Positions 16,589 to 52,800 of a DNA stretch of 64,000 bases are shown in pieces (the stretch's first letter is position 1; every line of letters starts with the position of its first letter). Under the pieces are notes generated by a model. It worked only from the letters and a program-made list of their open reading frames with translations. It searched no databases and was not told the origin of the DNA. Source of the stretch: Amyelois transitella (Eukaryota; Arthropoda; Insecta; Lepidoptera; Pyralidae); contig NC_083532.1 of the NCBI RefSeq assembly GCF_032362555.1, positions 261,001-325,000 of the forward strand, read 5' to 3'. The translations under genes and the position numbers were made by a program.

Positions 16589-18769
16589 ATGGAAAAGTTA
16601 GTAAATACTTACTGTCGCCTTTGTGCAGAACCCAAGAGCCCAGAGAAGCTGCTTAATTTGCGTGAAGACTGTTTAAAACACCAAGAAATCTTATTAAAGT
16701 TGACGTTCTTGAATGCACATTACGTCGAAATAAACTGCGACAATATTTTGCCTAAAACAGTCTGTTTCATTTGCTACGACTCTCTAAATAAAGCTTACGA
16801 CTTCCTCGACAAGGCGAAGAGAGCTCAGAATACATTAGCAGTATTATTTTTGAATAAAAATGCTGCGAAATACGATGACTTATCAGATGATGATCGCATG
16901 GTTTTCGACGATTTCCTATCCCAGGAACCCGCAGAAGACCTTAATATTGAAGTTAAACAAGAGAAAATCAGTCCAAAGTTAATAAAAAGTGCCTCGACAG
17001 CATTAGAAACTGTAATTGAAGTAAAAAATGAACCTAAAGAAGAATACCCGGAACAGCCTAATTTATCAGATATATTAAACGAAAATGTCACTAATAATTG
17101 CGAGCAGACGTTAGATGTCCAAGATATAATAGAAGCGGCAATATGCAATATACCGATGAACTCAAATGTTGAGATTTATGCGAAGGACTTACCAGATTTG
17201 GACAAAAGTGTCATAAAGACTTGGAAAGATTATCCATGGCTGTGTGCCTTATGTAACATTGAATTTTTAGATCTGGACACGTTGAGGTTGCACGCGAAGG
17301 CAGTACACGGCAAGTGTGCTACGTTCCTGTGTATCGACTGTAAGGTTGCAAGAAAAGATAAATTTACTTCCTTCGTTAAGCATGTTAGAAAACATTGGAA
17401 AAGTTTGAGGTAATAAAAATATAGTTTTCTTTAACTACCAACATTCAATCACGTCCTCATCCCGTACAGCATAGACAGGGCCAGCAGTCTTTAAAATATT
17501 AAAGGGAATTATGCCAGCTCTGTCTTCCCTGCAAGGGATACCACAATATTATGTGAATAAATGTTTAGATCTTGTGCTGACATCATTAAATGACATATGT
17601 ATAGTCACGTCTATATCCCTTGCTAGGTAGACAGAGCCGACAGTCTTGAAAAGACTGATAGGCCACATTCAGCCGTTTAGCTTGACAATAGTTGAGATTT
17701 AAAAAAAAAAATATGGGTTATTAGCCCATGGTCTAAAAGAAGAATGCCAAGTTTTTGCCTATCCCTTTGTCGCCTTTTACGACATCCATTGAAAAGAGAT
17801 GGAGCGCTCTTATTCTTTTTTTAAGATATACCTAAGCTCTTGGCAACTATTCTTAAACATTATTCAATATATTCCAGAAATTACTGTTACTATTGCAACG
17901 AAATAATCGACAAAACTGAATCATCTGGTACCCACTTGAAGCTACACTTCTTGAAGTCCCAACTGCCTTGCCCTCTATGCGGAGAAATAGTCCAGAACGA
18001 GGAAGAACTGAAACTACACCTCCAGGAGTACGGAGCTGTGAAAACTAAGCGAAAACCACGAAGAAAGCCTGGAACACCAATCACAGTCGAAGACCTGACG
18101 TGTTCGCTATGCAAAAAGGTCTACAAAAACCCCAACAGCCTGAGAGATCACATGAAACTTCACAAGATTGACAGGAAAAGGAATTACACGTGCGAACGTT
18201 GCGGCAAAATGTTTTATAACAAAGGTACTCTAACCTCTCATATAATGTCTCACGACAAGATCAGACCGCATGTTTGCAGGATATGCAACAAGTCGTTTCT
18301 CTATCCGAACATGTTGCGGAGACACGTTGAAATGCATTCCGGTGTTAAGCCGTTCTCGTGTGAACAATGTGGACGTTGCTTCAGATTGCAATATCAGTTG
18401 AATGCCCACAAAATTGTGCACACAAACTCGATGCCTCACATATGCCAGTATTGCAATAAGGCGTTCCGTTACAAGCAGATTTTGAAGAATCATGAACGGC
18501 AACATACGGGTGCGAAGCCTTATTCTTGCCAGCAGTGCGGTATGGAATTCACGAATTGGTCCAATTACAATAAGCATATGAAACGTAGACACAATACGGA
18601 CACATCGAAGAAGAAAATCACTCCGGAGGGAGTTTTTCCTATCAATTCGGAGACAGGACAGATAATACGGGTTGAGAACAGTTTGGGAATGGAAGAGTGG
18701 AAGAGTAAGATCATGATTCCGGCCAAGCGCGGGAAGAAGAGAGTGATAAAGCAAGAAAACAATGATTGA
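16589..18769 (+). CDS. ZAD-C2H2 zinc-finger protein 2 (two exons)
   Basis: Paralogue of the gene at 14567-16189. Exons 16589-17409 and 17878-18769 join in phase 2 (KSLR/NYCYYC), giving 570 residues. The start ATG is chosen because MEKLVNTYCRLC places the first ZAD cysteines as in the neighbour. ZAD: CRLC near residue 9 and VCFIC further on. The acidic linker again carries V-K-x-E motifs. Ten fingers: a block of four beginning W-x-x-Y-x-W-x-C, whose fourth finger (CPLCGEIV..HLQEYG) lacks its last histidine, then six canonical fingers. The tail has KKKITPEGVFPIN and then a basic stretch. The intron holds an inverted A repeat. Probably a nuclear DNA-binding regulator with unknown targets. Confidence 0.91.
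17410..17877 (+). other. ZAD2 intron, half filled by an A repeat
   Basis: GTAATA donor and ATATTCCAG acceptor. An inverted, degraded A copy spans 17586-17827, its head about 50 nt from the acceptor; a worn A-like fragment lies at 17455-17545. Confidence 0.8.
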
Positions 18770-20666
18770 ATTATCCCTTGGTAGACAGCCACGTTAAAAT
18801 TGAGATTCAAATAGTGTCAGGTTGCAAGCCCATCCCCTACAAGAAAAGTTTACGACATACAAGGGAAAGAGATGGAGTTGTCTGTATATATGTATGTATG
18901 TTTCACGAGTGAATGTTCAGTTGTAAAGTGCAGTATTTTTTTAATGTGTTAAATTTTATATAAAGACACTTGTACTAATGACGACATAATGTAAGTCTCG
19001 AACTTACACTAAGGCTAGCATAATCTGTGTAAATTGTTCCATATATGTATAATTGTATATATTTATTTGTAATATCTTTCTTGCACAGAAATTTACACAG
19101 TTACAAGAAATAGTACGTATTTATAAAAGTAATAAATCACTTGCAATGACGGAGTTATCCAGTGAAGGGATCTCTTCCAGTAAAACGGCAAACAATAAAG
19201 GAAATAGATAATTCATTTAAAAATTGTCGCATAATATATTAGGATACACTCTTCACGTCTATTCCTTACGGGTTAGACAGAGCCACGAGCCATTAGTTGG
19301 ATCTCATAAACATAGATTTGAGATCTAGACATGTCTAATGGTAAATATTGTTCTGTGGTTGTTTCATTTTTGGTCAAGATATACTAAACATTATTCTTAT
19401 TATATTCTGTTCTTTTATTTGTATAGTTGGTTTATAATTTTGTTTATATTTATAGGGTCTAGCAGATAAAACGGCAATATGTAAAATATTTTTTTAATAA
19501 TTAAGTTACGAATAAAATTATGCCATAATTTATTTTCATTAATTTGTCCTTCATTCATTCATTCATTTTGTAGCGGGAGCGATGATTCGGGCTCGACCGC
19601 CACCAAAGGGAAGATCTTCCGCCAGGTTGATATGTTATGCATACGCGGCTCCGACAAACTTTGCTTCCGCGATTTGGACTGCTGTTTTGGCTGATGGTGT
19701 CGCATGATTGGCTGTTGTGACTTTTAGCGTAGAGATGTCGCCACAGATATACAGAGTCAATAGTAACAACTAAGTACGTTTATCTGGAACATATTGGCGG
19801 GAATTAGGTGAACGAGTATATTCTTTTAGTCGCCTTGTTGGTCTGGAAGCAAAAAGAACATTTCAGCTATACATCCTACATATAATCTGTAGGTGATCTA
19901 AAGATGTCCACATTGACCGGAGAAGGAGTGCAAGAAGTTAAAATCGAGGCGTGCGAGCGTCTTCTAAGAAGGTAACTTACATACGTTATGTCAAGTCTAT
20001 ATCCCTTGCGGGGTAGACAGAGCCAACAGTCTTGAAAAGTTTGGCTTTATGATGGAATTGAGATTCAAATAGTGACAGGTTGCTAGCCCATCGCCTAAAA
20101 GAAGAATCCCAAGTTTATAAGCCTATCCCTTAGTCGCCTTTATTTCAGCTATATTAAAAGTTAATCTAGGGAAAGGTTTATAGTTAACTTAGATTCTACT
20201 AGGTAGTGAAGTAGTAACTTATCTGAATCTCATTAACATCATTAACCGACCCAGTTGAACGTGGTCTTTAAGTTTTTGACTTTGACCTCGTATTGCATTC
20301 ATGGTTGCGTGCTACACATACATGTGCGTGCATACACAAAAAAAAGGTTTTGTTAACTGTCAATACTGTCATTGTCAGGCAGTTTACCATGAAAAAAAAA
20401 GCGTAATGTCAACAAAGCCAAGCTACGCTAGAATTTTGTTAAAAACTTTATAATTTTGTTAAAAATATCAATTTAAATAACTTATTGTTTCAGTTCAAGC
20501 TTATGAATGATCTATGTGATTGTGTAAACGTTATCAAAACAGAGACAATAAGGCTACAAAGTAAAATAATGTAGGTACAAAATGGCCTTCCACAACTTAC
20601 GTTTCCCTTCAACACTACTCGCCTGAATGTTTCTTAAACTGATGCTTGTCTAAAACTGTAATAAGC
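18770..20666. other. ZAD2-ZAD3 intergenic region
   Basis: A remnants (18771-18882 minus, 19250-19280, 19990-20143 minus), a B tail fragment (18990-19072), a D fragment (19075-19212, minus) and a minus-strand F repeat (19571-19745). About 20300-20666 is repeat-free and is the likely ZAD3 promoter and 5' UTR. Confidence 0.6.
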
Positions 20667-23600
20667 ATGTCAGAAGCTACAGAATTTAACAAAAACGAAC
20701 AATCGTTCATACCTGTCACTGATTTAAATGATGTGAAAAACATGGATTATGGACAATCTATACGTGAGGAGTCGTCGACGGTGGTGTCCGCAGACACTGC
20801 AGGGGACAACGCCAATCCTGCTGAAACAAAATATAGGGAACCACACGACACAAGTCCCGTTTCGCGGGGCCACTGTCGTTTCTGCGCCACCGAAATGGCT
20901 TCTGGCGACCTCTTCGACTTGTCCACTGAAGACATCATAGAGAAATATCAAAAACTACTGGTGTACCTCAAGTTGGAGGTAGATTTCTCGCCAACCAACA
21001 AGTTGCCTAAACAAGCGTGCGGGTCATGCCACAATACGTGTTTAGAAACATATCGGTTCTTTTTAAAAGTGAAAAAAGCTCAGGACGAGTTGAACGCAAT
21101 ATATAATAATGTCACATATGTTCTGGAAGTGGAAGGAGCTGGCAATAAAGAGGTTCCAATGGAAATTGATGTGATACAGAATATGGTGGTCGGTAAAGGC
21201 GTAATAAAAACGGAAGTCGAAGATGGTTATGATGATGCGCACTTGGAGCAGAGCTCGTCCGATGAGGAGGTGCAATTGACAGGTACACAGCACATATTAT
21301 ATACCGTAGGTACACAAGACTTGGCTCTGTCTACCCTGCAAGAGTTGGTTACTCTTCCACGCAAATACTGCTGAACCAATAACGATGAAATTTGGTATGT
21401 AGGCAGATGAAGACCCAGGATAACATAGGCTACATTTTATCCCAGATTTCCGTCAAGATTGATTCAATGCGGACGAAGCGGCTGGCCTCTAGTAATATAA
21501 TCCTTTACTCTTGGTTTTCACAGATTTGGATGACTTAAAACTAAGCAAAGACACCATCACCCAAAAACCTGCATCAAAATCCCTTAAACAGCCAAAAACT
21601 GAAGCAACACACGACGTAAAGCCCAAAAGACGAGCCAAAAAGACAGCGTACAAAGTCAAGAAAGTGCCGATGAAAGTTTTGAAATCCGAGACGAATGTTA
21701 AGAATGTCAATTTCTCGTGGGCAAGTTATCTGTGGTCGTGTGACCATTGTAAAGCCGAGTTGGATACGATGGAGAACCTGAGGCTGCACAGCAGGTTCTC
21801 GCATAACTATTGCTACGGGTTCACTTGTGTGGACTGCAACGATGAGTTTAACACTTTCAACGCGTTCGTGGAGCACGTCCGTATGCACAGGGAGTATTTG
21901 AGGTAATTTTAACAGGTGAATGTGGCCTATTACTGACTGTTGGCTCTGTCTGCCCCTCAGGGGATATACCTAGACGTGATTATATATGATGGACTGGTAG
22001 CGTAGAGAAAATAGCTGGCAGCAGCTTTAAGTGCAGATCGTAAGAGTCAATCAAGGTATGGGCTTGAAATACTACAACGAGAGTTGTTGCTAGCCCAGGG
22101 AATCCCAAGTTAATAAGCCCTTAGTCACCTTTTACGACATCCATAGGAAAGAGATGGAGTGGACCTACTCTTTTTTCTTTTTTCAATTGGGCACAACACA
22201 AAAAAAAAATATATTGGGATATTATTAAAAAAGTCTTAAAAATAGAAAATATAAAAGGCGGACCTCCGGCCCCGAAACACTTCTGTGGTCCGGGAACAGG
22301 CAGAGATGAGAGAGAGATTTGAATAAAAAAAATCCATTCAAATTTTCAGACTGTACTGCCAGTATTGCAACAAGAAGTTTAGAACCAAAATGGAGTGTGT
22401 CGCCCACACTCTCACCCACTGGAGCGACGGTCAGAAGATATGCGAGCTGTGTGGTGAGATATTCCCCAGTCAGGGCGCTCTGACACAGCACAAGAGCTCT
22501 TACAGGTATGTGTGTAATTATTTATTTGGAAGACCTACGACTGTTTACAAAAAATAACGCTACGCATGTGAAACAAATGGTCCAATTACATGTTCTCACT
22601 GAAAGAAACACTAATATAAATAAAATAAAGTAACATCAATCTCTTTGTGCCGTGTGGTTCCCGGCACCAGTACAAAAAAGAATAGGACCACTCTATCTCT
22701 TTCCCATGGATGTCGTAGAAGGCGACTAAGGGATAGGCTTACAAAGTAAGGATTCTTTTTTAGGCGATGGGTAAGCAACCTGTCACTTTTATATGAATCT
22801 CAATTCTATCAGTAAACCAAACATCTGATCGTGGCCTATCAGTATTTTCAAGACTGGTGGATCTGTCTACCCCGCAAGGTATATAATCGTAATTATATAT
22901 TTGTATGAATGTATAATAAAATATAGTATCGTTGAGTATGTATCTCGTAACACAAATCTCCAACTTACTTCGAGGCTAACTCAATCTGTGTAATTTGTTC
23001 CTTATATATTTACTAGATGTGCCGGCAACTTCATCTGCGTGGAATAGTTATTTTGGGCATTATTGAAGCCGTCAAGGATGAATAATTTTCCCCGTTTTTT
23101 TTCACATTTTCCATTATTTTTTTTGCCTTATATTTGCAGCGTGATTTTATACTATTAGCACGGTCAAACAAACAAACTCTTCAGCTTTATAATATTATTA
23201 GTATAGATTTATTTATTTTACTTACAGAACGAAGCCGTTGACTCACAACACGAGGCGCAAAAGACCCAGACTGGTGGAGGGGCATTCGGGCTCGTGGGAC
23301 GATTACATTTACACGTGTCAAGACTGCTATCAGGTAACGTAATACTACGGCGGCCACTCCAATACGTCACATGCCATTAGCCAATGACAGCGAAGCGTGC
23401 GTCGCGGTTAACCAATAAATAAATAATACATACATACATACATAAAATCACGCCTCTTTCCCGTAGGCAGAGACTACCTCTTATAAATAAGTAATAAATA
23501 AATATATACAGGACAAATTACACATATTGAGTTAGCCTCGAAGTAAGTTCGAGACTTGTGTTACGAGATACTAACTCAACGATACTATATTTTATAATAA

Positions 23601-26459
23601 ATACTTATATAGATAAACATCCAAGACCCAGGCCAAATCAGAAAAAGTTCTTTTCATCATGCCCTGGCCGGGATTCGAACCCGGGACCTCCGGTGTCACA
23701 GACAAGCGTACTACCGCTGCGCCACAGCGGCCGTCAAATAATATAATACCAATAGCGGCAAATTCACGGATTGGAGAATTAATACAAACTTTGACCTAAC
23801 ATCGTCTGTCGCGCGGTTCCCCAGGCATCACACCGGCCTACAGGAAGATGCTCAGCTTATAAACAAAATATCCTGTTAATTGCCGTCTCGAATTCCCACG
23901 GGAATTATTTAAATTTTATATAAATCAATTAATTACAACGATGCATTCTCTCGTCCACATTTATTTTCTAAGTTTGGATAGTTGTGAAGTTGACGTTGTT
24001 AAAGAAAATGCTGCAGTGCAGTTTGTTACCGCTTCTTCTGGAAGCGGCAGTGAACTTGGTTTTAAGTAATTTATTTCACCAATGTTGTGAAACCAAATGA
24101 TATGAGAATTATTAAGTGATATGAAGTGTCCCATAATAATGAAAAAAAAATGTTAAATGAATATATTGATTAATATTTTTCAGGTGCCGTGTGGTGCCCG
24201 GCACCGATATAAAAAAGAATAGGACCACTCCATCTCTTTCCCATGTATGTCGTAAAAGTCGACTAAGGGATAGGCTTACAAACTTGGGATTCTTTTTAAG
24301 GCGATGGGCTAACAACCTGTCACTATTTGAATCTCAATTCTATCATTAAGCCAAATAGCTGAACGTGGCCATTCAGTCTTTTCAAGGCTGTTGGCTCTGT
24401 CTACCCCGCAAGGGATATAGACGTGACCATATGTATGTATTTTTCAGGTTATGCCCAACGTACATACATTAAGAAGTCACGTCAGAGAAATCCACATGAA
24501 ATGCTTTGCGATGAAGTGCGCAGACTGTCTGAGGGTGCATCGGTGTCACGGCGACCTGGTGAAACATGTACACGGACACAGGCCGGGCTTGAAGTGAGTG
24601 TAATTACGTTTGAAGTATGTGTAATTACGTTTGAAGTAAGTGTAATTACGTTTGATGTAAGTGTAATTACGTTTGAAGTAAGTGTAATTACGTTTGAAGT
24701 ATGTGTAATTACGTTTGAAGTAAGTGTAATTACGTTTGAAGTAAGTGTAATTACGTTTGAAGTAAGTGTAATTACGTTTGAAGTAAGTGTAATTACGTTT
24801 GATGTAAGTGTAATTACGTTTGAAGTAAGTGTAATTACGTTTGAAGTATGTGTAATTACGTTTGAAGTAGGTATAATTACGTTTGAAGTAAGTGTAATTA
24901 TGTTTGATGTAGGTGTAATTATGTATTATTATATAGTGCCGTGTGGTTAGCGGCACCAAAAAAAAAAAAAGAACAGGACTAATCCATCTCGTTCCCATGG
25001 ATGTCATAAAAGGCGACTAGGGATAGGCTTATAAACTTGGGATTCTTCTTTTAGGCGATAGGCTAGCAACCTGTCACTATTTGAATCTTAATTCTATTAT
25101 TGCATTACCAAACAGCTGAACGTAGCCTATCAGTCTCTTTAAGACTCCGTCTACCCCGCATGGGATATACGTGACTATTGTAGCATTAGTATTTGATCTT
25201 GTGGAACATATACACGGACACAGGCCGTGCTTGAAGTGAGTGTAATTATGTTTGTAGTTGGTATAATAATGTTTCATTCGACGGCCTCTGTGGCGCAGCG
25301 GTAGTACGCTTGCCTGCGACACCGGAGGACCCGGGTTCGAATCCCGGCCAGGGCATGACGAGAAAATAACTTTTTCTTATTGGCCTGGGTCTTGGATGTT
25401 TATCTATATTAAGTATTTATTATAAAATATAGTATCGTTGACTTAGTATCTCGTAACACATGTCTCGAACTTACTTCGAGGCTAAACTCAATCTGTGTAA
25501 TTTGTCCAAAAAAAAAAAAACATATTGTGAATGTGGATGAAGCGAAAGAAGTATTCAGGTATCTGCCTACCCCTCCGGAAAAGAAGCGTGACTAATAAAT
25601 TGCTATTCATTCTCATCCCAACAGGAATTACTGCCATTATTGCAACCAGCACTTCACCAACCCTGAGGATATGGACGCCCACGTGGAGGTCCACTTCTCA
25701 GGGCCACAAACCGACCGGCCTTGTTTCGGCTGCGGAGAGATATTCCAGAACGAGGACCAGCTCAGGAAGCACATCTTCGAATTCGGCGCTCTGAGGCGGC
25801 CGGGCCCTCACTCCGAAGACGAGGTCACTTGCGACATATGCTCCAAGAACTGTGTGACAGTTGGCAAATTGAAGATACACAGGAAAATACATGAATACAA
25901 GGAGAGGTGTTTTGTGTGTGATACGTGCGGTAACTCCTATTTCAACTACTGGACGTATCAGTCCCATATAAAAGTGCACGGGGAACGGACGGAGATATGC
26001 AAGATTTGCAAGAAAGGATTCCCGACCAAAGTCAAGTTGAAGAACCACGCTAAAACCCATTTGGTGGATAGGCCGTACTCGTGTGAGCAATGTGGCAGCG
26101 CTTTCAAAACGAAGACCAAGCTGACTCGTCACCAGATGATCCATACGGATGCTAAGCCGTACGTGTGTGTGATATGTGACAAGAGTTTCAGACAGAAGAA
26201 CGGTTTGAAAGTGCATTCGGCTCAGCACACCGGTGTCAGGCCGTATCAGTGTGAGTTTTGTGATAGGACGTTCACGAATAACCCTAACAGGGATAAACAT
26301 ATGAGACGGAGACATGGTGTGCCTCTGTACAAGGCTAAGGAGGCTCCCAAAGAGATAATGGACTCGAACGCCAAGGAGTGGTTGAATCAGGTGACAGCGA
26401 ATCAGAAGAAACGGAAGGATGTTAATGAGACTGTAGTTGAAATGAGTGGTGCAATGTAG
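20667..26459 (+). CDS. ZAD-C2H2 zinc-finger protein 3 (six exons, 14 fingers)
   Basis: Third ZAD zinc-finger paralogue. Exons: 20667-21282, 21524-21902, 22350-22505, 23228-23333, 24448-24593 and 25625-26459, with phases 1, 2, 2, 0 and 2, giving 745 residues and no internal stop. The ZAD is in exon 1 (HCRFC ... ACGSC). Exons 2-3 encode a four-finger block (SWASYLWSC ... CELCGEIF). Exons 4-6 encode a second block of the same plan (SWDDYIYTC ... CFGCGEIF), followed by six regular fingers ending HMRRRHG. The fourth finger of each block lacks its final histidine. There is a short basic tail and no TPEGVFPIN motif. AATAAA lies at 26496-26501, immediately before a Helitron-like repeat. Introns are repeat-filled and carry a duplicated acceptor (24174-24183) and a donor-bearing minisatellite (24591-24926). 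Exon borders rest on splice consensus, finger continuity and the paralogues; cDNA would settle exon 4. Confidence 0.88.
21903..22349 (+). other. ZAD3 intron 2
   Basis: Phase-2 intron (EYLR/LYCQYC). It carries an A fragment in each orientation (21908-21990 plus, 22085-22190 minus). Confidence 0.75.
22506..23227 (+). other. ZAD3 intron 3
   Basis: A full A repeat (22647-22914) joins directly to a headless B SINE tail (22915-23008), followed by the C repeat. Only about 140 bp at the 5' end and 20 bp at the 3' end are not repeats. Confidence 0.75.
23013..23207 (-). mobile_element. C repeat 20 nt before the ZAD3 exon-4 acceptor
   Basis: CTAG end at 23013 and TC end at 23207, with an internal deletion compared with the 260-bp copies. 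It leaves only the tract TTTATTTATTTTACTTACAG between itself and exon 4. Confidence 0.75.
23494..23737 (-). mobile_element. B SINE inside an F repeat, ZAD3 intron 4
   Basis: Complete minus-strand copy with intact A and B boxes. It sits, with a G tail fragment (23440-23482), between two pieces of one F repeat (23340-23420 and 23745-23850), so both arrived after F. Confidence 0.88.
24174..24183 (+). repeat. Target-site duplication containing a copied 3' splice site
   Basis: TATTTTTCAG, identical to 24438-24447, which is the acceptor of ZAD3 exon 5. GT follows both copies. Confidence 0.88.
24184..24437 (+). mobile_element. A repeat inserted at the ZAD3 exon-5 splice acceptor
   Basis: Full-length A element of 254 bp from GTGCCGTGTGG to the TATG tail. 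It is flanked by direct repeats TATTTTTCAG (24174-24183 and 24438-24447). The right copy is the 3' splice site used by exon 5, so the insertion duplicated the acceptor. A branch-point-like GTGAC lies near the element's 3' end. Confidence 0.9.
24591..24926 (+). repeat. 16 x 21-bp minisatellite made of splice-donor sequences
   Basis: Sixteen exact-length 21-bp units starting at the last codon of ZAD3 exon 5. Consensus GAAGTAAGTGTAATTACGTTT. Unit 1 (GAAGTGAGTG) is the exon end plus its real donor. Ten units have GTAAGT, three GTATGT, two GTAGGT and one GTGAGT, so every unit keeps a usable-looking donor. Single-base variants are scattered and there is no spacer. Confidence 0.97.
25188..25262 (+). 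repeat. Partial duplicate of ZAD3 exon 5 end with its donor
   Basis: Reads DLVEHIHGHRPCLK and then GTGAGTGTAATTATG. It matches the end of exon 5 (DLVKHVHGHRPGLK plus GTGAGTGTAATTACG) with a few substitutions, followed by remnants of the same 21-bp unit. It lies about 600 bp downstream of the true exon end, between an A repeat and a B SINE. It has no upstream acceptor that I can see, so it is probably not spliced. Confidence 0.85.
25277..25508 (+). mobile_element. B SINE, full length, ZAD3 intron 5
   Basis: Head with GTGGCGCAGCGGTAG and GGTTCGAATCC, body TTGGCCTGGGTCTTGGATG, ending TGTAATTTGTCC. It is followed by poly-A and a G tail fragment (25524-25592) close to the exon-6 acceptor. Confidence 0.9.
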
Positions 26460-31400: not shown

Positions 31401-34400
31401 CAAAGAATGGTGGCAATCCTTAATTGCTGTATTTAGTCAATGTAGAGTTTATACGGCAACAGACATGTCAAAATTTTATTTGCCCGCCGAGCTAAAAAAA
31501 AACTGATAACTCTGATTATTAAGGAATTAGCTTACATGTGGAAACTTGAATATTTCCAGAATGTCTTCACTGTTGCGTCGCCTGGTAATTACTTATTTCT
31601 AAATAAGAACGAAATTATGATGAAAAGACAAAAACTTAATCGATTAAATAAAATCACAATCATTATTTCACTTTCCCATACATACCTCGTCAAAAATATA
31701 ATATTCTCTCTTACAATATACTTGCCTATAATGTTTATTTAAGTACATATAATTATATCTTAAGTACTTACCTAGTAATACTTAGGTATTGGATATTAAA
31801 ATTATGTTACTAATTATGCATATTCTATAACTTTGGGGCACAATCTGGTTCGCATATTTTATAGGGATTCTAATTTTGCAGTGTTATTGTTATGTAAGGC
31901 TAATCGATTAAAGAAATTAACTACAAAACTTATATTACATGCTTTTTCACGCGGGATCAAAAGTGCCCACATTTTCATAACTGTTAAATTTAAAAGGTGG
32001 TGCTTTTTAACATTTACGATTTATTTTTTAGTATTTTCGACAACTAAACTCAACTGCACTAAACGGTTGCGTCATAAATTTTATTCATGTTTAATAAATT
32101 TTTTTTTATGTGTATTAAGTATACTGTTTATAAAAAGTTACGATTATAGACCTGGTCCAAGCCCTTTTGACCCCGACAAGGCTATGTCTCTGTTTCTTAT
32201 TTACTATTAAGAGAAGTAATTTCTGTCGATTCTATAACTCTATATTTTTAATAAATGGCTAGATCTAGATCATTAGTCTCGAGTGATTTAGAAACATGTG
32301 AAATTGTGCGTTGGTTGAACTGGGATTTATTTTGAGGGGTAAGTACTAACTAATTCAATTTTAATTACTTATTTTTAAAAATTTGTAGCACAGGGAATCT
32401 ATTTGCTTACTTTGATTATGCTTTATTATTGTCCTATCGTTTATTTAATGTGGTTTTGATGAAGAGATCTTGGAGAACCGACTAAAAATGAAGTGAGTCA
32501 AGGCAAAGAGACTTTATCTTTACTCTTAATTATTATAAATCGCCTTATCACCTGCATGCAGCAAATTTTTTGAATTAAGTTATATGAAAATTTTGCCTTA
32601 CAGGAGACTCATAATTTGTATTATTGTGTGTTTCTTATATTTTCGTATCTAATTTATTTATTTAAAGATGCAGTATTTTCAACCGTTATGATCACATCAA
32701 TAAAAAATATTACGAAATATTCAATGCAAACCAATTTTGAGATACAGAATATAATCGTCAGCTAATTATAGGATTTTTTTTTATTTGTGAACTCGATTTA
32801 AAAGTGCACGCTATTTACAATGCGTATAATACAGTTTAAACAGATATTGCACCACCCAATTTTAGGGAAAATTTAGGGAATCGTTGTAAAATTTTCTATA
32901 TATTATATTGTTACATTGTAAATTTAAGGTACAATATTTGAGAAGAAATTAATATTAACTTAAATAAAACGAAAACTTTTTTATTGTAAAATCCAACGAC
33001 GTGGTTAAGAAATATATACGAGATCACTTTGGGAATTATCACATTTATCAAAATGTAAACTTAGGAAATGAAAGCAAAATTACTTTGTATAAACATTTAA
33101 CTTGCAGACGCCTCTTTAAACTAGAGTTTCCTAAATATATTCCTTAAAATTGGTCGGTGTAATTCTTTACCTGAATATTATTATTAATTACCTATAGAAA
33201 TTGACAAAAACACCAAAACTACAAAACACCTATTTTTTCACTATGACAAATTCGTAAAATTGAAAAATTTAGGGAGTCAAACGAATTTTGTAATTGACTG
33301 GTAGGTGAAAATCAAAGGATAAATAAAAAAAAGAAACTAAATGAAAATAAATTTTAATAAGTAAATAAAAAAAAAATGCCTAATTCACATTTAAAATACA
33401 GTTTGACACTGATATTTATAAATATAACGATTATATTGTCATTCACACAGTATCTTTTGAAATTACAATTTATACACTTATTTTATGGAATAAACATGAT
33501 TACTTATTACTTAATTTAATACAAAATATTTTAAGCCATATACATACTTTACCTAGTTTTATTACACTTAAATTGCAATTTTTACTTAATAAAAATAAAC
33601 GTCTGCTTAATCTAGATAACTTACTTACAACTTGATAAAAAATACTTAAATAAAGTAAATAATATTCAAAAGAATATGCCGGGATAAAATAAAATTAATA
33701 ACGTACAAATGTATTTTTTACAATTTGGATTTATTAATTTAAAAAATAGTAGATAGTATTTCAAATTCTGAAATGCCTATGTTGGTTTGGTAACGAAATA
33801 TTTATTCAAGAATATTTTTTATCAAGTGAAAGTAATAAACATAATGTTAACATTGTGTATTATTAACAATATTTTATTAAAACTTTCATATATTTTACTT
33901 TTATTGAAAAAGTTTACTAATAAAATCATTTAAAATCGCGGTAAATTAAGATATTTTTTAACATAAAGCAATTAAATTAGAATTATAACAGACAGTATTT
34001 CTTTTGAAAAATCGATAAAAGTACAACAATCGTCTTTGTTTCCAGCGGTTAGAACAAATATTTCTTAAACGATAATCAAATCATATTTTTTTTAAACTGT
34101 ATGAATAAATAAATACACGCAATAGCAATTTAGCCCGACCGTTTCACCCCAATTTTACTGACACAGTCAATGGATGCTTATTTTTTAATTATATAAAAAA
34201 ATATATTGTACCAATAAAAACAACAGATGTTGGTTCCAGTAATTTAGCCAGACTATTCACACTACATATCTAACCGAAATATGTAGTCACAAAATAGATT
34301 TATTTACACCAATAAAAATAATCTGAACGTGGCCTTTCAGTTCAACAATGTTGGATCTATTTACCCCCTGAGGGCTCAAGACGTTATTATTTCTAATAAA

Positions 34401-34520: not shown

Positions 34521-37500
34521 TTACTGGAAAGGTGCGCGATCGCAGTTACACGCCGCCCCGCCTTGGCCCTGTCGACATTGCACGTCACACCAAGCTGCCC
34601 ACCCTTCCGCTGTATCCAACGTCCTGGTCAGAGCCTGTCGGGGCGAAGCGGAAACTTGGTCGCAAACTGGACATCCTATTAAGGAGATAATTATTAATTT
34701 AGTATTTATTGCATTATTAAATATTAAGACCATTGATATAAAAAATACAATAGGTGACCTTATCAGGATCTTTTCACGACAGATTTTACGACATCCATGA
34801 GAAAAAGATGGAGAGGTTTTGTTCTTTTTCCTATTGGTGTCGGGAACCACACGGCACCATTGTAATTAAGCTCAATATGTATGTTACTACTTACCAAATT
34901 TCTATTTGTTTTGAACTATATTTTTTATCAGTAAACGTTTACGACTTAGAAACAATGTACTTACCACCGAGCACATATAGGTCAGAAATGCAAAATGCAC
35001 TACAGATGGCGCTCCAGTCAATAGTTCCATTGTTTTCCGCGCCCCCCATTAAGGCAGCACAGTGGCATAAGGGGTCACCTGCAACAATATGTATACATAC
35101 ATAATAACGTCTTAATACCTTACGGGGTAAACAGGGCCAACGGTCTTGAAAAGACTGAAAGGCCACGTTCAGCTGTAGGGCTGAAAGATAGAATTGAGAC
35201 AGGTTGCTAACCCATCGCCTATAGTTATTTTATTATATTAACTTGATGAATTTACCCGACTCGCCTACTTTTGGAAAATGGACATAGATGGACCCCGGGT
35301 TCTCGTCCCATTATCATTATCTTTGTAATAGTTTAAATTGCGTTCACAACTCAGAAATCAGAAACATTTATTTTTCAGAATACATTAGATATAAGACCAC
35401 CGTCCCGGCCACGGTCTTGGCTTGGGTTAGTCAGGTTTTTACACGAAACGAAAACGCAACTATGTTGAATCATGGTTACCTACGGATTCAATTGCAAGAA
35501 TGTGCAAAACACTAATTAATGCAAGTACAGAAACGTACGCAACTTCGCGGTAGGATTTAACCATTGAGTCACGTTTTTTCGAGTTTCCCGCTTGAACCCA
35601 GGCTCTTCTATAGGCCCCGAAAATTTACATACATACATATGGTCATGTCTATATCCCTTGCGGGGTTGACAGAGCCAACAGTCTTGAAGAGACTGAATGG
35701 CCACGTTCAGCTATTTGGCTTAATTATAGAATTGAGATTCAAATAGTGACAGGTTGCTCGCCCATCGCCTAAAAGAAGAAACCCAAGTTTTTAAGCCTAT
35801 CCCTTAGTCGCCTTTTACGACATCCATGGGAAAGAGATGGAGTGGTCCTATTCTTATTCCTATTGGTGCCGGAAACCACACGGCACTTATTATATTAAGC
35901 TTTAGTTTTAATTTGAGTTAATTTTAAAGTTAATTAATGATTCATAATAAAAACGTTAAAATGTTTTAACTGGATATGATGAGTTCAAAAAGATTCTTTT
36001 AGTATCTTCAAATTGGTGCAGACCCGTTTTCAAACAGCGCCGCTGTTGATGTGCCTCGGGCCTTAAGAACGCCTCTCTTTACCATATACATTAAATTTAA
36101 AGATAAAGACACACTCACCCAATTTGTTTTGACAGAGCGTAGGGCACACTGCGTACCGCGGTTGTCCGTAAGCCGAATGGGTTTCATTGGCTGATGATAG
36201 AGCTGATTTGAGACCCACGGGCACCAGGTCCTTGCAGGTAGCTCCGCAACCCTCGCCTCCAAGACCTGGGTAGAATATACACACATATGGTCACGTCTAT
36301 ATCCCTTGTGGGGTAGAGCCAACAGTCTTGAAAAGACTGATAGGCCACGCTCTAGCTATTTGGCTTAATGATAGAATTGAGATTCGAATAGTGACAGGTT
36401 GCTAGCCCATCGCCTGAAAAAAGAATCCAAAGTTTGTAAGCGTATCCTTTAGTCGCCTTTTACGACATCCATGGGAAAGAGATGGAGTGGTCCTATTCTT
36501 TTTTGTACTGGTGCCGCGAACCACACGGCACTAGATATTATTACGGGTAGAATATTTTTATCTTTAATGTAACACTAGCTGTGACTTCGTCCGCGTGGAA
36601 TAGTTATTTTGGGCACCACTGAAGCTCTCAAGAACTGATCGTTTTAGTGGTAGAATTTATCCACTCTAAAAAAAGGTTGACGACAATGCTTTATAAATGA
36701 TAACCAGTAAATACACTTTAAAAAATTAGTGTAAAAAATTATATATAATTATTTAATTGTTTTGTTTTTTTAAAATGGGTTTTATTAATTTTGTACTCAT
36801 TAAATTGAAAAAATAAAAACATAAATCAGAAAAGCCGTCTTCTTAAAAATAAACTGTTAATTTATCTTAATAAAGGTATTTTATAGGCAAATTATAAAAT
36901 AGTTTTATGTTATTTTTTTGCATGGTTTTCCAATGGCTTAGTTATCGAAACTTTTAAATATTTAAATTAGTTTTTACTATAGAATTAGTTCATTATGTTT
37001 ATATTTAGTAAGTACATACCAATTTTGTTATATTTTTATTTTTGTTATATTTTAATTGTTTATTTAAAATTTATTGTACAAAATAAAATGTGCTATACCT
37101 ACAATTTTATCTGACATGCAACCAATGGGTCTGACAGAGTTTTAAAAATTAGAAAAATTAAGATCTAAATTTTTTTAGTTGTGTTTAAACTTATTAATTA
37201 TTTATATTGAATTTAAATCGTAGGTACCTAAGTTTATGCGATAAACTTTTTTCGGGAACTCTTTTTAATAACTTATGAGGTTGTTTAAAATTTATGTTAG
37301 TAGGTATATACAATAAAATATTTGTAAGTATTTTATATCTTCGGTATAGCTAATATTATTAAGATAAATTAACATCTAATCGAAAAATTTAATTATTTTG
37401 CAACATCACTTAGAACAAAGAAAATAATTTTATGAAAGATTCTGAATAGGTACCTAATAAAATATCAGGCGTTATTTAACTATGTAGGTAAAATTTATTA

Positions 37501-38211
37501 TACGTGTGCGTGCCTTTTATTTTTGGTGCGTTCTATTCTGCGTAGTATTCTAAGTCCACTTTTTAACCTTAATAATTTCCGTAAGTGTATTATTAATAAA
37601 TTAATTTAAAGCGAAGTGATTTAAAAATAATTAAAGAGGTTGAAAAAGCATGAATAGAATCAAAATGATTGAGCAGTCGTTGGTAGGTAAAGTGGTTTCA
37701 CTTATCGTTGTTAATCGTCAGAACCATATATAAATTGAAGTAAAAATACAATACAAATTTCTTAAAAATTACACTGTGTTTCCAAAAATAGTACTTATAT
37801 ATCTTAAATAGAGACTTACCTCCAAAATAAACAAACACATAGGCACACAAAAATTTACACAAGCTTCACAAAACCACAAACGAAAAAGAAAAAAAAAACA
37901 AACAAAAACAAAACCAGACCGGCGTGACAGAGGTCCGCACACAAATTCGTCCGCGCGGGCACTGAAGGGACCCACTGCTTCGCGCCCTTTCTAAACTGCG
38001 CCAAATATATCCTATTCAGTTCCCCGCCATTATATTTCAATTGCAGAACAACCTCCGGCGTCTCTATCTGACGTTTGTCGATATTTGAATCAGGCGATCC
38101 TATTGGATCGTCTCCGGTGATGGCCGTTTCTGATTGGTCGGCGCCGCATGACGCAACCCCTAATAGCGCCACGCCCAAGGCAAAGAAAATAAGAGTTTTC
38201 AATCCAGCCAT
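34521..38211 (-). CDS. Secreted protein with four tandem tetracysteine modules
   Basis: I do not recognise this family. Minus-strand exons: 38211-37920, 36265-36119, 35078-34965 and 34675-34521, all joined in phase 1, giving 235 residues. The N terminus is a signal peptide (MAGLKTLIFFALGVALLG, cleavage near residues 22-25). Next comes an acidic stretch, a possible convertase site DKR (46-48) and a linker. Four modules of C-x3-C-x8/9-C-x1-3-C follow: C91/95/104/108, C138/142/151/153, C172/176/186/189 and C214/218/227/229. N-glycosylation sequons are at NET and NGT. Sixteen module cysteines suggest two disulfides per module. An acceptor (TTGTTTTCAG) lies 2 nt upstream of the ATG, so a non-coding first exon is likely. 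The exon-1 donor is weak (G/GTCTGG). It is probably secreted; role unknown. It could be a small matrix, signalling or immune peptide precursor. Confidence 0.82.
34676..36118 (-). other. Introns 3 and 2 of the tetracysteine gene
   Basis: Intron 3 (34676-34964) has an A fragment at 34782-34857. Intron 2 (35079-36118) has A copies at 35092-35222 and 35627-35887, all in the same orientation as the gene. The first ends about 15 nt before the exon-3 acceptor. The segment 35395-35450 looks F-like. Confidence 0.7.
36266..37919 (-). other. Intron 1 of the tetracysteine gene
   Basis: An A repeat (36278-36531, same strand as the gene) lies about 12 nt before the exon-2 acceptor and a C fragment at 36573-36640. 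The remaining 1.2 kb is AT-rich and unassigned. Confidence 0.7.
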
Positions 38212-46882: not shown

Positions 46883-49800
46883 ATGGCAGCGCTGTCGGGT
46901 CAAGGGACTCCCAAGCTGACTTCGGCAGTGGGGAACCTCTACTATGATTGTAAGTATAATGTAATAAATATACATACATGTAATCACGTCTGTATCCCTT
47001 GCGGGGTAGACAGAGTCAACAGTCTTAAAAATACTATAAGATCACGTTCAGCTGTTTGGCTTAATGATAGAATTGAGATTCAAATAGTGACATGTTGCTA
47101 GCCCATCGCCTAAAAAAGAATCCCATGTTTGTAAGCTTATCCCTTAGTCGCCTTTTACGACTTCCATAGCCAATCGTCTAAAAGAAGAATCGCAAGAATG
47201 TAGAATTATTCATGTTAATCAATGTCAATTATTCATTCATGTTTTTTAATGTAGACAATGTGCAAACAATGGTCCGATGGTCCATGATTTAGATTTAAGA
47301 GATCAATATTTGAATATTGACATCCGATGAAAATGCTGCAGTGTAGTTTGTTCCGCCGCTTCTTCTACACAAGCGCTTTGGAAGCGGTAGTAGTTATAAT
47401 TAGATTAAAGTGATGTGACGTCAATAAGTGATACCTTTTATCCAATTTTGAAAATAAATCTATTCTATTCTATTCTTTTCTTTAGTCGCCATTTACGACA
47501 TCCATGGGAACGAGACGGAGTGGTCTTGTTCTTTTTTTTATTAGTGCCGGGAACCACACGGCACGGCCATTTTTTTACATACCTACATACATACACACAT
47601 ATAATCGCGTCTATATCCCTTGCGGGGTAGACAGAGCCAACAGTCCTGAGCGGACTGATAGGCCACGTTCAGCTATTTGGCTTTAAGATAGAATTGAGAT
47701 TCAAATAGTGACAAGTTGCTAGCCAATCGTCTAAAAGAAGAATCGCAAGTTTATAACCCCATCCTTAGTCGCCTTTTACGACATCCATAGCAACGAGACG
47801 AGACGAGAACGAAAAACAGGACTTGTTCTTTTTTTATTAGTGCCGGGAACCACACGGCACGGACATTTTTTTTTTAAAGTTACGTTTATATCGTATCTCA
47901 GGCGTAGACGGTATACAGCGTAAGTACATTCTTACGTTTTAGACATCTACGCCGTAGACTGTCTACGACACGGAGCTAGTTTCACGCCTTTTTCCCGGAG
48001 TGGTAGGCAGAGACTACATCTTTCCACTTGCCACGATCCCTGCACACTTCTCTCGCTTCATCCACATTCATAACTCTCTTCATGCAAGCTCGGCGGTTTC
48101 GGGCACTCTTGACCTGACCTTTTGCTAGAACGTCTCCGATTTGATCAAGATATAGATCAAGATAGAATTGAGATTCAAATAGCGACAGGTTGCTAGCCCA
48201 TCGCCTAAAAAAAGAAGCTCAAGTTTGTAAGTCTATCCATTAGTCGCCTTTTACGACATCTATGGGAACGAGATGGAGTGGTTCTATTCATTTTTGTATT
48301 GGTGCCGGGAACCACACGGCAATACAACACAAATGATCATTATTGCCCATAAAAAAATACATATGTAGTAGAGGGAAGTATGCAGGGATCGTGGCAAGTG
48401 GAAAGAGGTAGTCTCTGCCTACCCCTCCGGGAAAGAGGCGTGATTTTATGTATGTATGTATGTAGTAGAAGCATACATTCTAACATACGAGTACATATAC
48501 ATATACTTCAGATTAAAGGATAAAAAAAATTACCTCATAATATACACTACTATAACCCATCTCTTTCGGCAAGTGGGTTCATATCTATATGTATATCTCC
48601 CCTACTTGTAACCTGATCCTAGTAATATCCTGAGTCAGGAAACAGATCTTGTCATAATGACAACTCGAATCCTTATCTTTAGGAACTGAAATAATAATGT
48701 ATATTTTTAGTTTGTATACATTCAGATATAACTATTGTATGCCGTGTGGTTCCCGGCATCAATGAAAAAAGAATAGGACCAATCCATCACTTTCCCATGG
48801 ATGTCGGAAAAGGCGACTAAGGGACAGGCTTACAAACTTGGGATTCTTCTTTAGGCGATGGGCTAGCAACCTGTCACTATTTCAATCTCAATTGTATCAT
48901 TAAGCCAAATAGCTGAACGTGGCCATTCAGTCTTTTCAAAACTGTTGGCTCTGTCTACTCCGAAGAGGATAAAGACGTTATTACAAGTATTAAGTAAATA
49001 TTTATAATATAAATCTTTATTTTTTTCTCTTCTTAAGTAACTCCTTTGACGGCCTCTGTGGCGCAGCGGTAGTACGCTTGTCTGTGACACCGGAGGTCCC
49101 GGGTTCGAATTCCGGCCAGGGCCTGGGTCTTGGATGTTTATCTATATAAGTATTTATTATAAAATATAGTATCGTTGAGTTAGTATCTATCGTAACACAA
49201 GTCTCGAAGTTACTTCGAGGCTAAGTCAATCTGTGTAATTTGTCCCGTATATATATAAAAAAAAAGTTGTTATTAGTATGAACAGAAGAAGTAATGTACA
49301 TACTACTCTGTCAAGAAAGTAGCAGGAAAAGATCAATAATACACAAACTGTTTGTTATTCATCCAAATTTATTTTATCACCTTCAAAATATGCTCCTTTA
49401 GAAACGATACACTTACGCCAACGAATAATCCAATCATCAAAACATTTTTTAAACGCTGTTTCCGGAATTGAGGTCAGTTCTCGCCGCGAATTCTCTTTTA
49501 TGTCTTCTACCGATTGAAAACGGGTGCCACGAAGTGGTAATTTGAGTTTAGGAAAAAGAAAAAAGTCGGCTGGAGCCATATCTGGTGAATATGGTGGTTG
49601 CTCGATGGTATTTGTTGAGTGTTTGGTTAAGAATTCGTTCACAATGATGGCCTTGTGCGAAGGTGCATTATCATGGTGCAAAATCCAAGAATTTTCTTTC
49701 CACAAATCTGGCCTTTTTCGTCGGATTTGCTCTCTTAAACGCCGCATAACACTCAAATAATATTCCTTATTTACCGTTTGACCTTCCGGCAAGAATTCCG

Positions 49801-52800
49801 AGTGCACAACACCGCGATAGTCAAAGAAAACAGTCAACATGACTTTGACTTTTGAACGACTTTGGCGTGGTTTTTTCGGTTTCGGTTCAGTTGGAAGGCG
49901 CCACTCCGAAGCTTGTTGACTAGTCTGCATGTCAAACTCGTAAACCCACGTCTCGTCACCAGTAACAATGCGTTTCATGAATGTTGGGTCGGAATTGACT
50001 CGTTCTAGCATGTCCTCAGCGACTCTCATGCGATTGAGTTTTTGAAAAAAATTCAGGTCTTTTGGGACTAGCCGAGCGGCAACATGTTTCATACCCAAAT
50101 TATTAGTTAAAATGGTACGGATCGACTCGTGAGATACAGAAAGTTCGGTGGATATCTCTCTCAAAGTTGAATGAGGATTTTCAGTCACTATTTCCTTCAC
50201 TTTTGCGATGTTAACTTCAGTTGCAGACGTTGATGGCCTACCAGAGCGAGGCAAATCTTCCATCACATCTCGACCGCTTTTGAACGCTTTGTACCACTCA
50301 TAAGCACGAGTTTTTGATAAAGTCGATTCACCGTAAGCCTTCTGTAACATTTTCAGTGACTCCGAACACGATATTCCATTGGCAATGCAAAATTTAAGAC
50401 AAACTCTTTGTTCGATGTTTTTATCCATTATGAAATTAGCAATACACACTAGATATGATATAACTAAAAATAGCACTGTATTTAATGTAAACAACAGATG
50501 CAACTCAAACTCCGCGCCAAAATGGAAAACAGTTGTGCCAATCTAACAACAACAAAAAAAACAAAAATTTGAATTTGGAACCATAAATAAATAATCCATT
50601 CCCGATACTTTTCTGACTGAATGTATATTTATGCAACTTCAAATTGAATTCCCTTGTACCTCTTTACAACTGTAATTAATCACATATTGTTTCGTGACAT
50701 TTCGCGGTTTACAGTGAACTGTGATTAATTAAAATGGGAATGAAAGTCAGGTGCAGAGGTTATAGCTAGCTGAGGGGCGCACTGACATATAAACTTATAA
50801 TTAGATTTAAGTGATGTGACGTCAATAAGTGATACCTTGTATCCAATTTTTAAAATAAATCTATATCCCACTACGGAAAAAGAGGGGTTGAGCAACTGAG
50901 ATCACTTTGTTTGAGGACAAAAGAAGTAAGATTTTTTTTGTTTGTGAGCTTTAGTTATATAGATACATATGTATAACCGCGTCTGTATACCTAACGGGGT
51001 AGACGTATTTAATAATCCTGGAAATACTGTAAGGCCACGTTCAGCTATTAGCGCATCGCCTAAAAAGGAACATACATACGTAAAATCATGCCTCTTTCCC
51101 GGAGGGGTAGGCAGAGACTACCTCTTTCCACTTGCCACGATCTCTGCATACTGCCATCGCTTCATCCACATTCATAACTCTCTTCATGCAAGCTCGGCGG
51201 TTTCGGGTACTCGTGACCTGACCCTTTACCAGGACGTCCTTAATTTGATCAAGACACGTTCGTCTAGGTCTTCCCACTCCGACCTTTCCCTCCACACTCC
51301 TTGTATATCTGCTTAGTCAACCTGCTTTCATTCATCCTCTTCACATGACCGAACCATCTTAACATACCCTTTTCTATTCCTGTAACTAAGTACATCTTCT
51401 TTCACATCACAACATTCCGTTATCACGCTGTTCCTTATCCGGTCACTCAATTTCACACCCATCATACTCCTTAACGCTCTCATTTCCACCACATTTATTC
51501 TGCTTTTGTGCTTCTTTTGCCATACCCAACTTTCACACCCATACATTAATGTCGAGACTAACAAAAAAGAAAAAAAAGAGAATCCTAAATTTGTTAACTT
51601 TTCCCTTAATTGACTTTTAAAATTCACAATGATTTTTCATCGGCACCAGCATGTAAGCTAGGAAATTTAATTCTGAAGCAAAATTCCACATATTTAATGA
51701 GAAACGACACATATTTAAGAGATTCAATCACCCCAGAATCAATTAATTCTTACGAGTCTATCTTCTCGGTATATCCGAGATATGTTTTACTCAAGTAATG
51801 CAAGGATTACGACGAAAGCTGGGGCAAATTGTTATGGGGTTTGGTTGTTCAAAGAGTAAGTAGGAATAGAGGTACATTTATTGAAAAAAGTAGTCGTTCC
51901 CCGCTTAGGTACCTACACAATTTTTTACAACATGCATATATTCACGTATGTATCCCTTGAAATGGCTGATAGGCCACGCCTAGGTTTTTGGCTTGATGAT
52001 AGACTTGAGATTTAATTAGTGATAGGTCGCTAGCCCATCGCCTAAAAGAAGAATCCCAAGTTTATAACCCTATCCCTTAGTCGCCTTTTTTTAAACTTTG
52101 TGATTAACCGCCGTGTGGTTCCCGGCACCAATACAAAAAAGACCACTCCATCTCTTTCCCATGAATGTAGTAAGAGGCGACTAAGGCGCTTTCAAACATG
52201 AAATTCTTTTTTTAAGGCGATGGGCTAGCAACCTGTCACTATTTGAATCTCAATTCCATAATTAAGCCTAATAGCTGGGCGTGGCCTGTCAGTCTTTTCG
52301 GGACTGTTGGCTCTGTCTACCCCGCAGGGGATGTGGACGTGACCATATGTATGTATGTATGTACAAAAATAAGATTATTATTTGAGTATGTAACTCTTGT
52401 GTAATGTGTCTCTTCTGCAAATTTTAAAACTATTCTGTGCCGCGTAATATATTCCAGGATTATTCGGCCATTGCGGCCTATAGACACGGATTGTTTTTTT
52501 TTTATTTACGACCATAGACTATCTGTTGGTCTCTGGAATTAGGGGGGGGGATACAGTTTGTTTTGATTATTTATTTTAAATAGACTGATTTTGGAGTCAG
52601 TGCGAATTTTATTTATGTTTGTAGGTAAAAATTATGCCAATAAGAATACATACTTACTATAAGACATACATACATATGGTCACGTCTATATGCCTTGTGG
52701 GGTAGACAGAGCCAACAGTCTTGAAAAGACTGAATGGCCACGTTCAGCTATTTGGCTTAATGATAGAATTGAGATTCAAATAGTGACAGGTTGCTAGCCC

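What the first reader, a model, noticed from the sequence alone, without database searches (positions are those of the whole stretch)
34521..38211. Unrecognised secreted protein built of four tetracysteine modules
Four exons splice cleanly into a 235-residue protein with a signal peptide and 16 cysteines arranged as four copies of C-x3-C-x8/9-C-x1-3-C. Each module is preceded by an aromatic or aliphatic residue and has a Gly-rich loop. I know no named family with this spacing. The regular pattern across four separate exons, with open phases and splice sites, is hard to get by chance. It may be a new insect secreted-peptide family.
Basis: partly seen in the sequence, partly recalled or inferred. 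Interest (0 to 1): 0.85.

Follow-up and report, generated by a model that had tools for sequence, protein, structure and literature searches.

The report
Insect secreted protein, four cysteine modules
A single-copy gene, probably of a moth or butterfly, appears to encode a secreted protein with four copies of a small four-cysteine module; no catalogued family we could search matches it, but relatives in other insects could not be checked here.

Summary
On the minus strand four exons splice into an intact 235-residue protein with a hydrophobic N-terminus and 16 cysteines as four C-x3-C-x8/9-C-x1-3-C modules; 0 of 200,000 residue shuffles gave four. Pfam, NCBIfam and PDB sequences gave no credible match. 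The own genome shows one detectable copy. The nearest known design is the lepidopteran X-tox 'defensin rosary', whose six-cysteine consensus is not met. Most likely it is a secreted, disulfide-clamped multi-module protein; its role is inference. Against: the exon 1 donor is weak and codon use is only mildly coding-like. The decisive tests, transcripts and insect homologues, could not be run; unnamed orthologues are likely. Interest is moderate.

The parts
37920..38211 (-). coding exon 1: signal peptide, acidic propeptide, KR site, linker, first half (C-x3-C) of module 1
   Evidence: open frame; preceded by TTTTCAG|AA-ATG; donor CCG|GTCTGG is weak
38143..38211 (-). signal peptide, about residues 1-23; exact cleavage site not computed
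   Evidence: hydrophobic maximum 2.14 (19-residue Kyte-Doolittle) at residue 6; cleavage site inferred by eye
38071..38076 (-). dibasic Lys46-Arg47, possible propeptide cleavage site; next residue Gln48
   Evidence: KR at 46 and RK at 74 are the only dibasic pairs; none lies inside the module region
36119..36265 (-). coding exon 2 (phase 1-1): second half of module 1, linker, first half of module 2
   Evidence: one place in own genome
34965..35078 (-). coding exon 3 (phase 1-1): second half of module 2, linker, first half of module 3
   Evidence: one place in own genome
34521..34675 (-). coding exon 4: second half of module 3, linker, complete module 4, stop
   Evidence: one place in own genome
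36234..37941 (-). module 1 (residues 91-108, C-x3-C-x8-C-x3-C), split by intron 1 at Gly98
   Evidence: genomic ends worked out from the exon coordinates
35059..36146 (-). module 2 (residues 138-153, C-x3-C-x8-C-x1-C), split by intron 2 at Gly147
   Evidence: genomic ends worked out
34662..35004 (-). module 3 (residues 172-189, C-x3-C-x9-C-x2-C), split by intron 3 at Gly185
   Evidence: genomic ends worked out
34542..34589 (-). module 4 (residues 214-229, C-x3-C-x8-C-x1-C), uninterrupted
34299..34304 (-). first AATAAA after the stop, about 217 nt downstream; candidate polyadenylation signal
   Evidence: motif match only

Best explanation
A real single-copy insect gene for a secreted, disulfide-rich multi-module protein. 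Shown from sequence: intact spliced frame, hydrophobic N-terminus, four repeated four-cysteine modules, phase-1 introns in the C2-C3 loops. Inferred: signal peptidase, then cleavage after Arg47, removes an acidic propeptide and leaves a mature protein of 188 residues starting with Gln48 (able to form pyroglutamate). Each module folds as a short helix carrying C-x3-C, a Gly-containing turn and a C-x(1-3)-C clamp, held by two disulfides, so that the mature chain is a string of four small rigid beads joined by linkers of 18-29 residues with two N-glycosylation sequons. No dibasic site lies between the modules, so it probably acts as one multivalent binding protein in haemolymph or extracellular matrix rather than as a precursor of four peptides. 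The array arose by tandem duplication of a phase 1-1 exon.
For: Gene model and frame. Module repetition beyond chance, 0 of 200,000 shuffles. Introns 3 of 3 in phase 1 and 3 of 3 within C2-C3 loops; under uniform, independent placement the chance is about 1e-4, or about 0.003 ignoring phase. Annotated frame best of six in 4 of 4 exons by codon score. One detectable genomic place for each exon, so the exons are not part of the repeats in the introns. A helix over residues 22-34 of the exon 4 piece, containing the C-x3-C of module 4, in both low-confidence AlphaFold2 runs. KR site and sequons. Phase 1-1 units are the class described for shuffled extracellular modules (PMC8001218, passages).
Against: Donor 1 is weak, 5 of 9. 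Codon scores of exons 3 and 4 are negative, exon 4 is best of frame by only 0.2 bits, and 6 of 10 sliding windows of the spliced frame lie within the 95% range of non-coding open windows. Modules share only 19-30% identity with module 1, with three Cys and one Gly the only invariant columns of the alignment, which did not line up the fourth Cys, so common descent rests mainly on spacing and intron positions. The introns are not at the same place relative to C3 (6, 4 and 1 residues before it). A 19-residue stretch from residue 171 reaches Kyte-Doolittle 1.62, near the usual membrane-segment threshold (recalled), though it holds four module cysteines. PMC8001218 says the widely used class 1-1 modules are mainly beta with few mainly alpha and describes introns at module boundaries; this one is predicted helical and has introns inside. 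No transcript and no homologue seen; function and tissue rest on no data.
Confidence: 0.62

Rival explanations
1. It is a diverged member of the lepidopteran X-tox family: a string of defensin-type CS-alpha-beta motifs in which each motif has lost two of its six cysteines.
For: Same design: signal peptide, imperfect tandem cysteine motifs, unconserved spacers without cleavage sites, and a probably lepidopteran host (PMC2728511, passages). C-x3-C and C-x-C are the core motifs of CS-alpha-beta (PMC5234102, passages).
Against: The X-tox consensus C-x4-C-x3-C-x7-G-x-C-x3-K/R-C-x-C has no match in the protein, nor has a loose C-x3-C-x7-10-C-x3-9-C-x-C. Pfam, which holds Defensin_2, gave no hit. X-tox domains are described as cationic; this module region has pI 4.9.
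Confidence: 0.1
2. The folding unit is the exon, not the reader's module: the C-x1/3-C at the start of each exon pairs with the C-x3-C near its end (an order like endothelin or apamin, recalled), leaving the C-x3-C of exon 1 to pair with the last C-x-C of exon 4.
For: Exons 2 and 3 are symmetrical phase 1-1 units, each with exactly four cysteines, as expected of a duplicated domain (PMC8001218, passages).
Confidence: 0.2
3. It is a tandem serine-protease inhibitor, each C2-C3 loop serving as a reactive loop.
For: Some alpha-hairpinins with two C-x3-C motifs inhibit trypsin through a site between the motifs (PMC7191063, passages); module 1 has this spacing, module 4 has Arg directly after C2 and module 2 has a Lys in its loop (sequence).
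Against: No Lys or Arg in the loops of modules 1 and 3; three of four modules lack the second C-x3-C; no match to any inhibitor family.
Confidence: 0.12
4. The gene is decaying or the model is wrong: repeats have invaded all three introns near the acceptors, donor 1 is poor, and no functional transcript is made.
For: Donor 1 scores 5 of 9. Matches to one SINE-like repeat begin about 15 and 29 nt upstream of the acceptors of exons 2 and 3, and a fragment 109 nt upstream of exon 4. Codon use is only mildly coding-like.
Against: 235 codons without a stop or frameshift, AG at all acceptors, good donors 2 and 3, module pattern intact. The repeat is common, 63 pieces in the 64 kb window, the query copy included, so nearby copies are expected.
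Confidence: 0.12
5. It is an ordinary orthologue of a conserved but unnamed insect protein already present in sequence databases as 'uncharacterized protein'. This is compatible with the best explanation.
For: Regular gene structure near recognisable genes (PreP-type M16 peptidase, Methyltransf_32, zf-AD zinc fingers); Pfam coverage of insect orphan proteins is incomplete (recalled).
Against: None from the calls; no insect database was available to look in.
Confidence: 0.75

Closest known systems
X-tox proteins of Lepidoptera (Spod-11-tox and relatives)
   Same: Secreted insect protein made of imperfect tandem cysteine motifs, each with a C-x3-C and a final C-x-C; spacers unconserved, no conserved processing sites between motifs (PMC2728511, passages).
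   Different: Four cysteines per module instead of six; no match to C-x4-C-x3-C-x7-G-x-C-x3-K/R-C-x-C; acidic instead of cationic; no Pfam Defensin_2 match.
Invertebrate defensins and scorpion toxins with the CS-alpha-beta motif
   Same: Pair of C-x3-C and C-x-C motifs (PMC5234102, passages).
   Different: C-x3-C and the closing C-x1-3-C are only 8-9 residues apart here, with no intervening cysteine; no match by pattern.
Alpha-hairpinins (plants) and kappa-hefutoxin type peptides (scorpions, cone snails)
   Same: Four-cysteine unit; precursors with tandem units after a signal peptide (PMC7191063, passages). Module 1 fits C-x3-C-xn-C-x3-C.
   Different: Modules 2, 3 and 4 end in C-x1-C, C-x2-C, C-x1-C; the wheat precursor genes are described as intronless, whereas this gene has introns inside the modules.
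Extracellular class 1-1 modules spread by exon shuffling (general kind)
   Same: Symmetrical phase 1-1 exons in a secreted protein (PMC8001218, passages).
   Different: Introns lie inside the cysteine module rather than at its boundary, and the predicted element is helical, rare among such modules according to the same passages.

Membership tests
X-tox (lepidopteran defensin rosary) | repeated C-x4-C-x3-C-x7-G-x-C-x3-K/R-C-x-C | tested here: not met
   no match in the 235 residues; consensus from PMC2728511 (passage)
X-tox (lepidopteran defensin rosary) | cationic domains | tested here: not met
   module region pI 4.89, charge -5.1 at pH 7
X-tox (lepidopteran defensin rosary) | immune-induced expression and secretion by haemocytes | not testable with these tools
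   hydrophobic N-terminus present; no expression data
CS-alpha-beta defensins | six-cysteine framework C...C-x3-C...C...C-x-C | tested here: not met
   loose pattern for its last five cysteines gives no match; Pfam scan gives no family
CS-alpha-beta defensins | helix clamped to a strand by C2-C5 and C3-C6 | tested here: inconclusive
   AlphaFold2 on exon 4 predicts the helix but no strand, mean pLDDT about 61
Alpha-hairpinin | C-x3-C-xn-C-x3-C | tested here: not met
   met by module 1 only, 1 of 4
Alpha-hairpinin | two antiparallel helices, C1-C4 and C2-C3 disulfides | tested here: inconclusive
   low-confidence models of exon 4 only
Any Pfam-A, NCBIfam or PDB sequence family | profile or sequence match | tested here: not met
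   Pfam none at E up to 10; NCBIfam one weak signal-region hit below its cut-off; PDB none at E up to 10. HMMER's filters drop most matches above about E 0.1
New insect secreted family | homologues with the same spacing in other insects | not testable with these tools
   no collection of insect genomes; viral contigs, prokaryote genomes and plasmids gave no credible relative

The most novel reading that the evidence does not exclude
A previously undescribed extracellular module: a two-disulfide helix-loop-clamp bead of about 16-18 residues, spread by duplication of phase 1-1 exons whose boundaries cut through the bead's own loop, so that each internal exon carries half of one bead and half of the next, and the disulfide-bonded units (three of four) are put together from two exons.
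Probability: 0.3. Interest if true: 0.6.

Novelty: new variant of a known kind. Interest (0 to 1): 0.4.

Why it matters
If real and conserved, it adds an unnamed cysteine module to the insect secretome and gives a four-copy natural array for finding how small a disulfide-clamped bead can be. The half-module exon layout would make it a clear example of exon duplication that works although exon and fold borders do not coincide. It would also be a second case, beside X-tox, of insects stringing small cysteine units into one secreted chain. If it is merely an unnamed conserved insect protein, it still deserves a family model, since no Pfam model searched here matches it.

Tried and rejected
Family look-ups: Pfam, NCBIfam, PDB sequences: nothing credible. 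NF050142 in NCBIfam is a lipoprotein-signal resemblance over residues 5-30 and was rejected. Relatives: viral contigs with the 147-residue module region (2 pattern hits) and with exon 4 (33), prokaryote genomes with exon 4 (593) and exon 2 (589): none confirmed by tblastn at E up to 1e-3. Plasmids by tblastn at E up to 1: one Pseudomonas place, E 0.8, 34.7% identity over 31% of the query, rejected as chance. The phage and E. coli collections were not searched. Paralogues: the own genome searched with the module region and with exon 1 gave only this gene's own exons at E up to 10. As a rough check that the genome search can see short cysteine-rich families, PF01097 (Defensin_2) gave one place on contig C1, 24.4 bits against a cut-off of 20.4, E 0.0136; 3 of 14 control genomes also rang, none over the cut-off. 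It was not followed beyond reading 300 bases of the locus that do not hold the match. Literature: five searches for peptide strings, spacing formulae or tetracysteine wording found no description of this protein; the papers listed (on the receptor PXR, polymorphic toxins and a stinkbug gut) were seen only as listings. Three more searches gave the comparison papers. The library is open-licence PMC only, so absence there is weak. PMC2999431 is held only as a stub and gave nothing. Considered and rejected on spacing from memory: EGF, Kazal, TIL, pacifastin, single VWC, chitin-binding peritrophin-A, odorant-binding protein. Structure: AlphaFold2 on exon 4 alone and with exons 3 and 2 as rows was too uncertain for a fold search, which was not run.

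Full report
What is there. The minus strand from 38211 to 34521 carries four open exons that join without a stop into 235 codons. Introns are 1654, 1040 and 289 nt, with GT-AG ends. Donors 2 and 3 match 7 of 9 consensus positions, donor 1 only 5 of 9. An acceptor-like TTTTCAG stands 2 nt before the ATG, so a non-coding first exon probably lies upstream; it was not looked for. The first AATAAA after the stop is about 217 nt downstream.

The protein. It starts with a hydrophobic stretch (Kyte-Doolittle 2.14), followed by an acidic piece (residues 24-47, pI 4.05) ending in KR, a basic linker (48-90, pI 9.8) and four cysteine modules at 91-108, 138-153, 172-189 and 214-229 with inner spacings 3-8-3, 3-8-1, 3-9-2 and 3-8-1 and linkers of 29, 18 and 24 residues. 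The only dibasic pairs are KR46 and RK74; none lies among the modules. Two N-glycosylation sequons lie in the linkers (124, 163). One other stretch, from residue 171 and holding module 3 cysteines, reaches Kyte-Doolittle 1.62; I take it for a buried, disulfide-bonded segment rather than a membrane segment, but that is inference.

Is it more than chance? Shuffling residues 24-235 gave four modules in 0 of 200,000 trials (three in 31). In six frames of the whole window the strict pattern occurs contiguously once, as module 4. Codon use was scored against seven open frames of neighbouring genes chosen by me. The annotated frame has the best score of six in 4 of 4 exons, but by only 0.2 bits in exon 4 and with negative scores in exons 3 and 4; the spliced total is +11.6 bits over 235 codons. 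Of 10 sliding 50-codon windows of the spliced frame, 4 exceed the 95% point and 1 the 99% point of 320 open windows from elsewhere in the region; none exceeds their maximum. So codon use favours the frame without being strong evidence alone.

The intron pattern is the most informative addition. All three introns are phase 1, each splits a glycine codon and each lies in the C2-C3 loop of a module (Gly98, Gly147, Gly185). Placed uniformly, three introns would all be phase 1 within these loops with probability about 1e-4, or 0.003 if phase is ignored; this treats the introns as independent and does not correct for known biases of introns. The glycine itself follows from G|G splice ends. Exons 2 and 3 are thus symmetrical phase 1-1 units, the class described for shuffled extracellular modules (PMC8001218, passages). 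But the exon borders cut the cysteine module, so that modules 1, 2 and 3 are each put together from two exons. The introns are not at exactly the same place relative to C3 (6, 4 and 1 residues before it), and the same paper describes such introns at module boundaries and such modules as mostly beta.

Copy number and surroundings. The window lies in contig C28 of a 327-Mb assembly of 33 contigs. Searches with the module region and with exon 1 found only the gene's own exons at E up to 10; the tool scores only its best candidates, so distant paralogues could be missed. Neighbours are an M16C (PreP-type) peptidase at 7592-10636, a Methyltransf_32 frame at 12443-13030, zf-AD zinc-finger frames and, at 49358-50542, a mariner-type transposase frame. 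No tool named the organism; that it is lepidopteran is my inference from gene content and repeats.

Relatives. No Pfam family at E up to 10, no credible NCBIfam model, no PDB sequence, no confirmed relative in viral contigs or prokaryote genomes, and one chance-level place in plasmids. None of these collections is one of insect genomes, so they say little about novelty among insects. Literature searches found no description of the spacing or peptides.

Structure. AlphaFold2 on the exon 4 piece, alone (mean pLDDT 61.4) or with exons 3 and 2 as two extra rows (60.8), gives a helix at piece residues 22-34 that contains the C-x3-C of module 4, shorter helical stretches before it and no strand. This agrees with a helix-borne C-x3-C but does not settle the disulfides.

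How it probably works. The reading I commit to is a secreted chain of four small disulfide-clamped beads on linkers, matured by removal of an acidic propeptide, acting whole as a multivalent binding protein in haemolymph or matrix. The hydrophobic N-terminus and the modules are shown by sequence; secretion, cleavage, fold, pairing and function are inferred. X-tox gives a precedent: Spod-11-tox is a string of cysteine motifs that is secreted into haemolymph without being processed and, by the paper's title, has lost the function of ancestral defensins (PMC2728511, start of abstract and passages). Its consensus is not met here, so this is 'works like', not 'is a'.

Verdict. It is a plausible unnamed insect secreted protein of a known general kind with an unusual cysteine spacing and exon layout. 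I expect that orthologues sit in insect databases as uncharacterized proteins; that expectation is not tested here and is the main reason for a moderate score.

Noticed in passing
36280-36535, 35107-35220, 34784-34857: All three introns hold pieces of one SINE-like repeat in the same orientation (antisense to the gene), their matches beginning about 15, 29 and 109 nt upstream of the acceptors of exons 2, 3 and 4; intron 2 holds a further copy at 35632-35887. The first start is the end of the query I cut, so the repeat may reach nearer. They might supply branch points or pyrimidine tract; chance is possible as the repeat is dense.
   Followed up: partly
1-64000: The SINE-like repeat has 63 BLAST pieces in the window at E up to 1e-5, the query copy included, and a 25-base core occurs 27 times with up to 3 mismatches against 0 on average in 100 shuffles.
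   Followed up: partly
49358-50542 (-): Uninterrupted 395-codon mariner/Mos1-type transposase frame (Transposase_1, HTH_48).
   Followed up: no
24363-25016: Tandem array in which three overlapping open frames read as short peptide repeats (for example VSVITFE), seen in the ORF list.
   Followed up: no
1289-1360, 4115-4186, 25284-25355, 49051-49124: ARAGORN calls three tRNA-His and one tRNA-Arg; I suspect tRNA-like repeats rather than real tRNA genes, untested.
   Followed up: no
L006 (own genome C1:8246968-8247042): A short Defensin_2 match, 24.4 bits, over the Pfam cut-off of 20.4: possible defensin or X-tox exon of this species.
   Followed up: no
14570-26456: Cluster of zinc-finger genes in both orientations; three of the frames were scanned and matched zf-AD, one of them (16574-17410) just under the Pfam cut-off; the others were judged by eye.
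   Followed up: no
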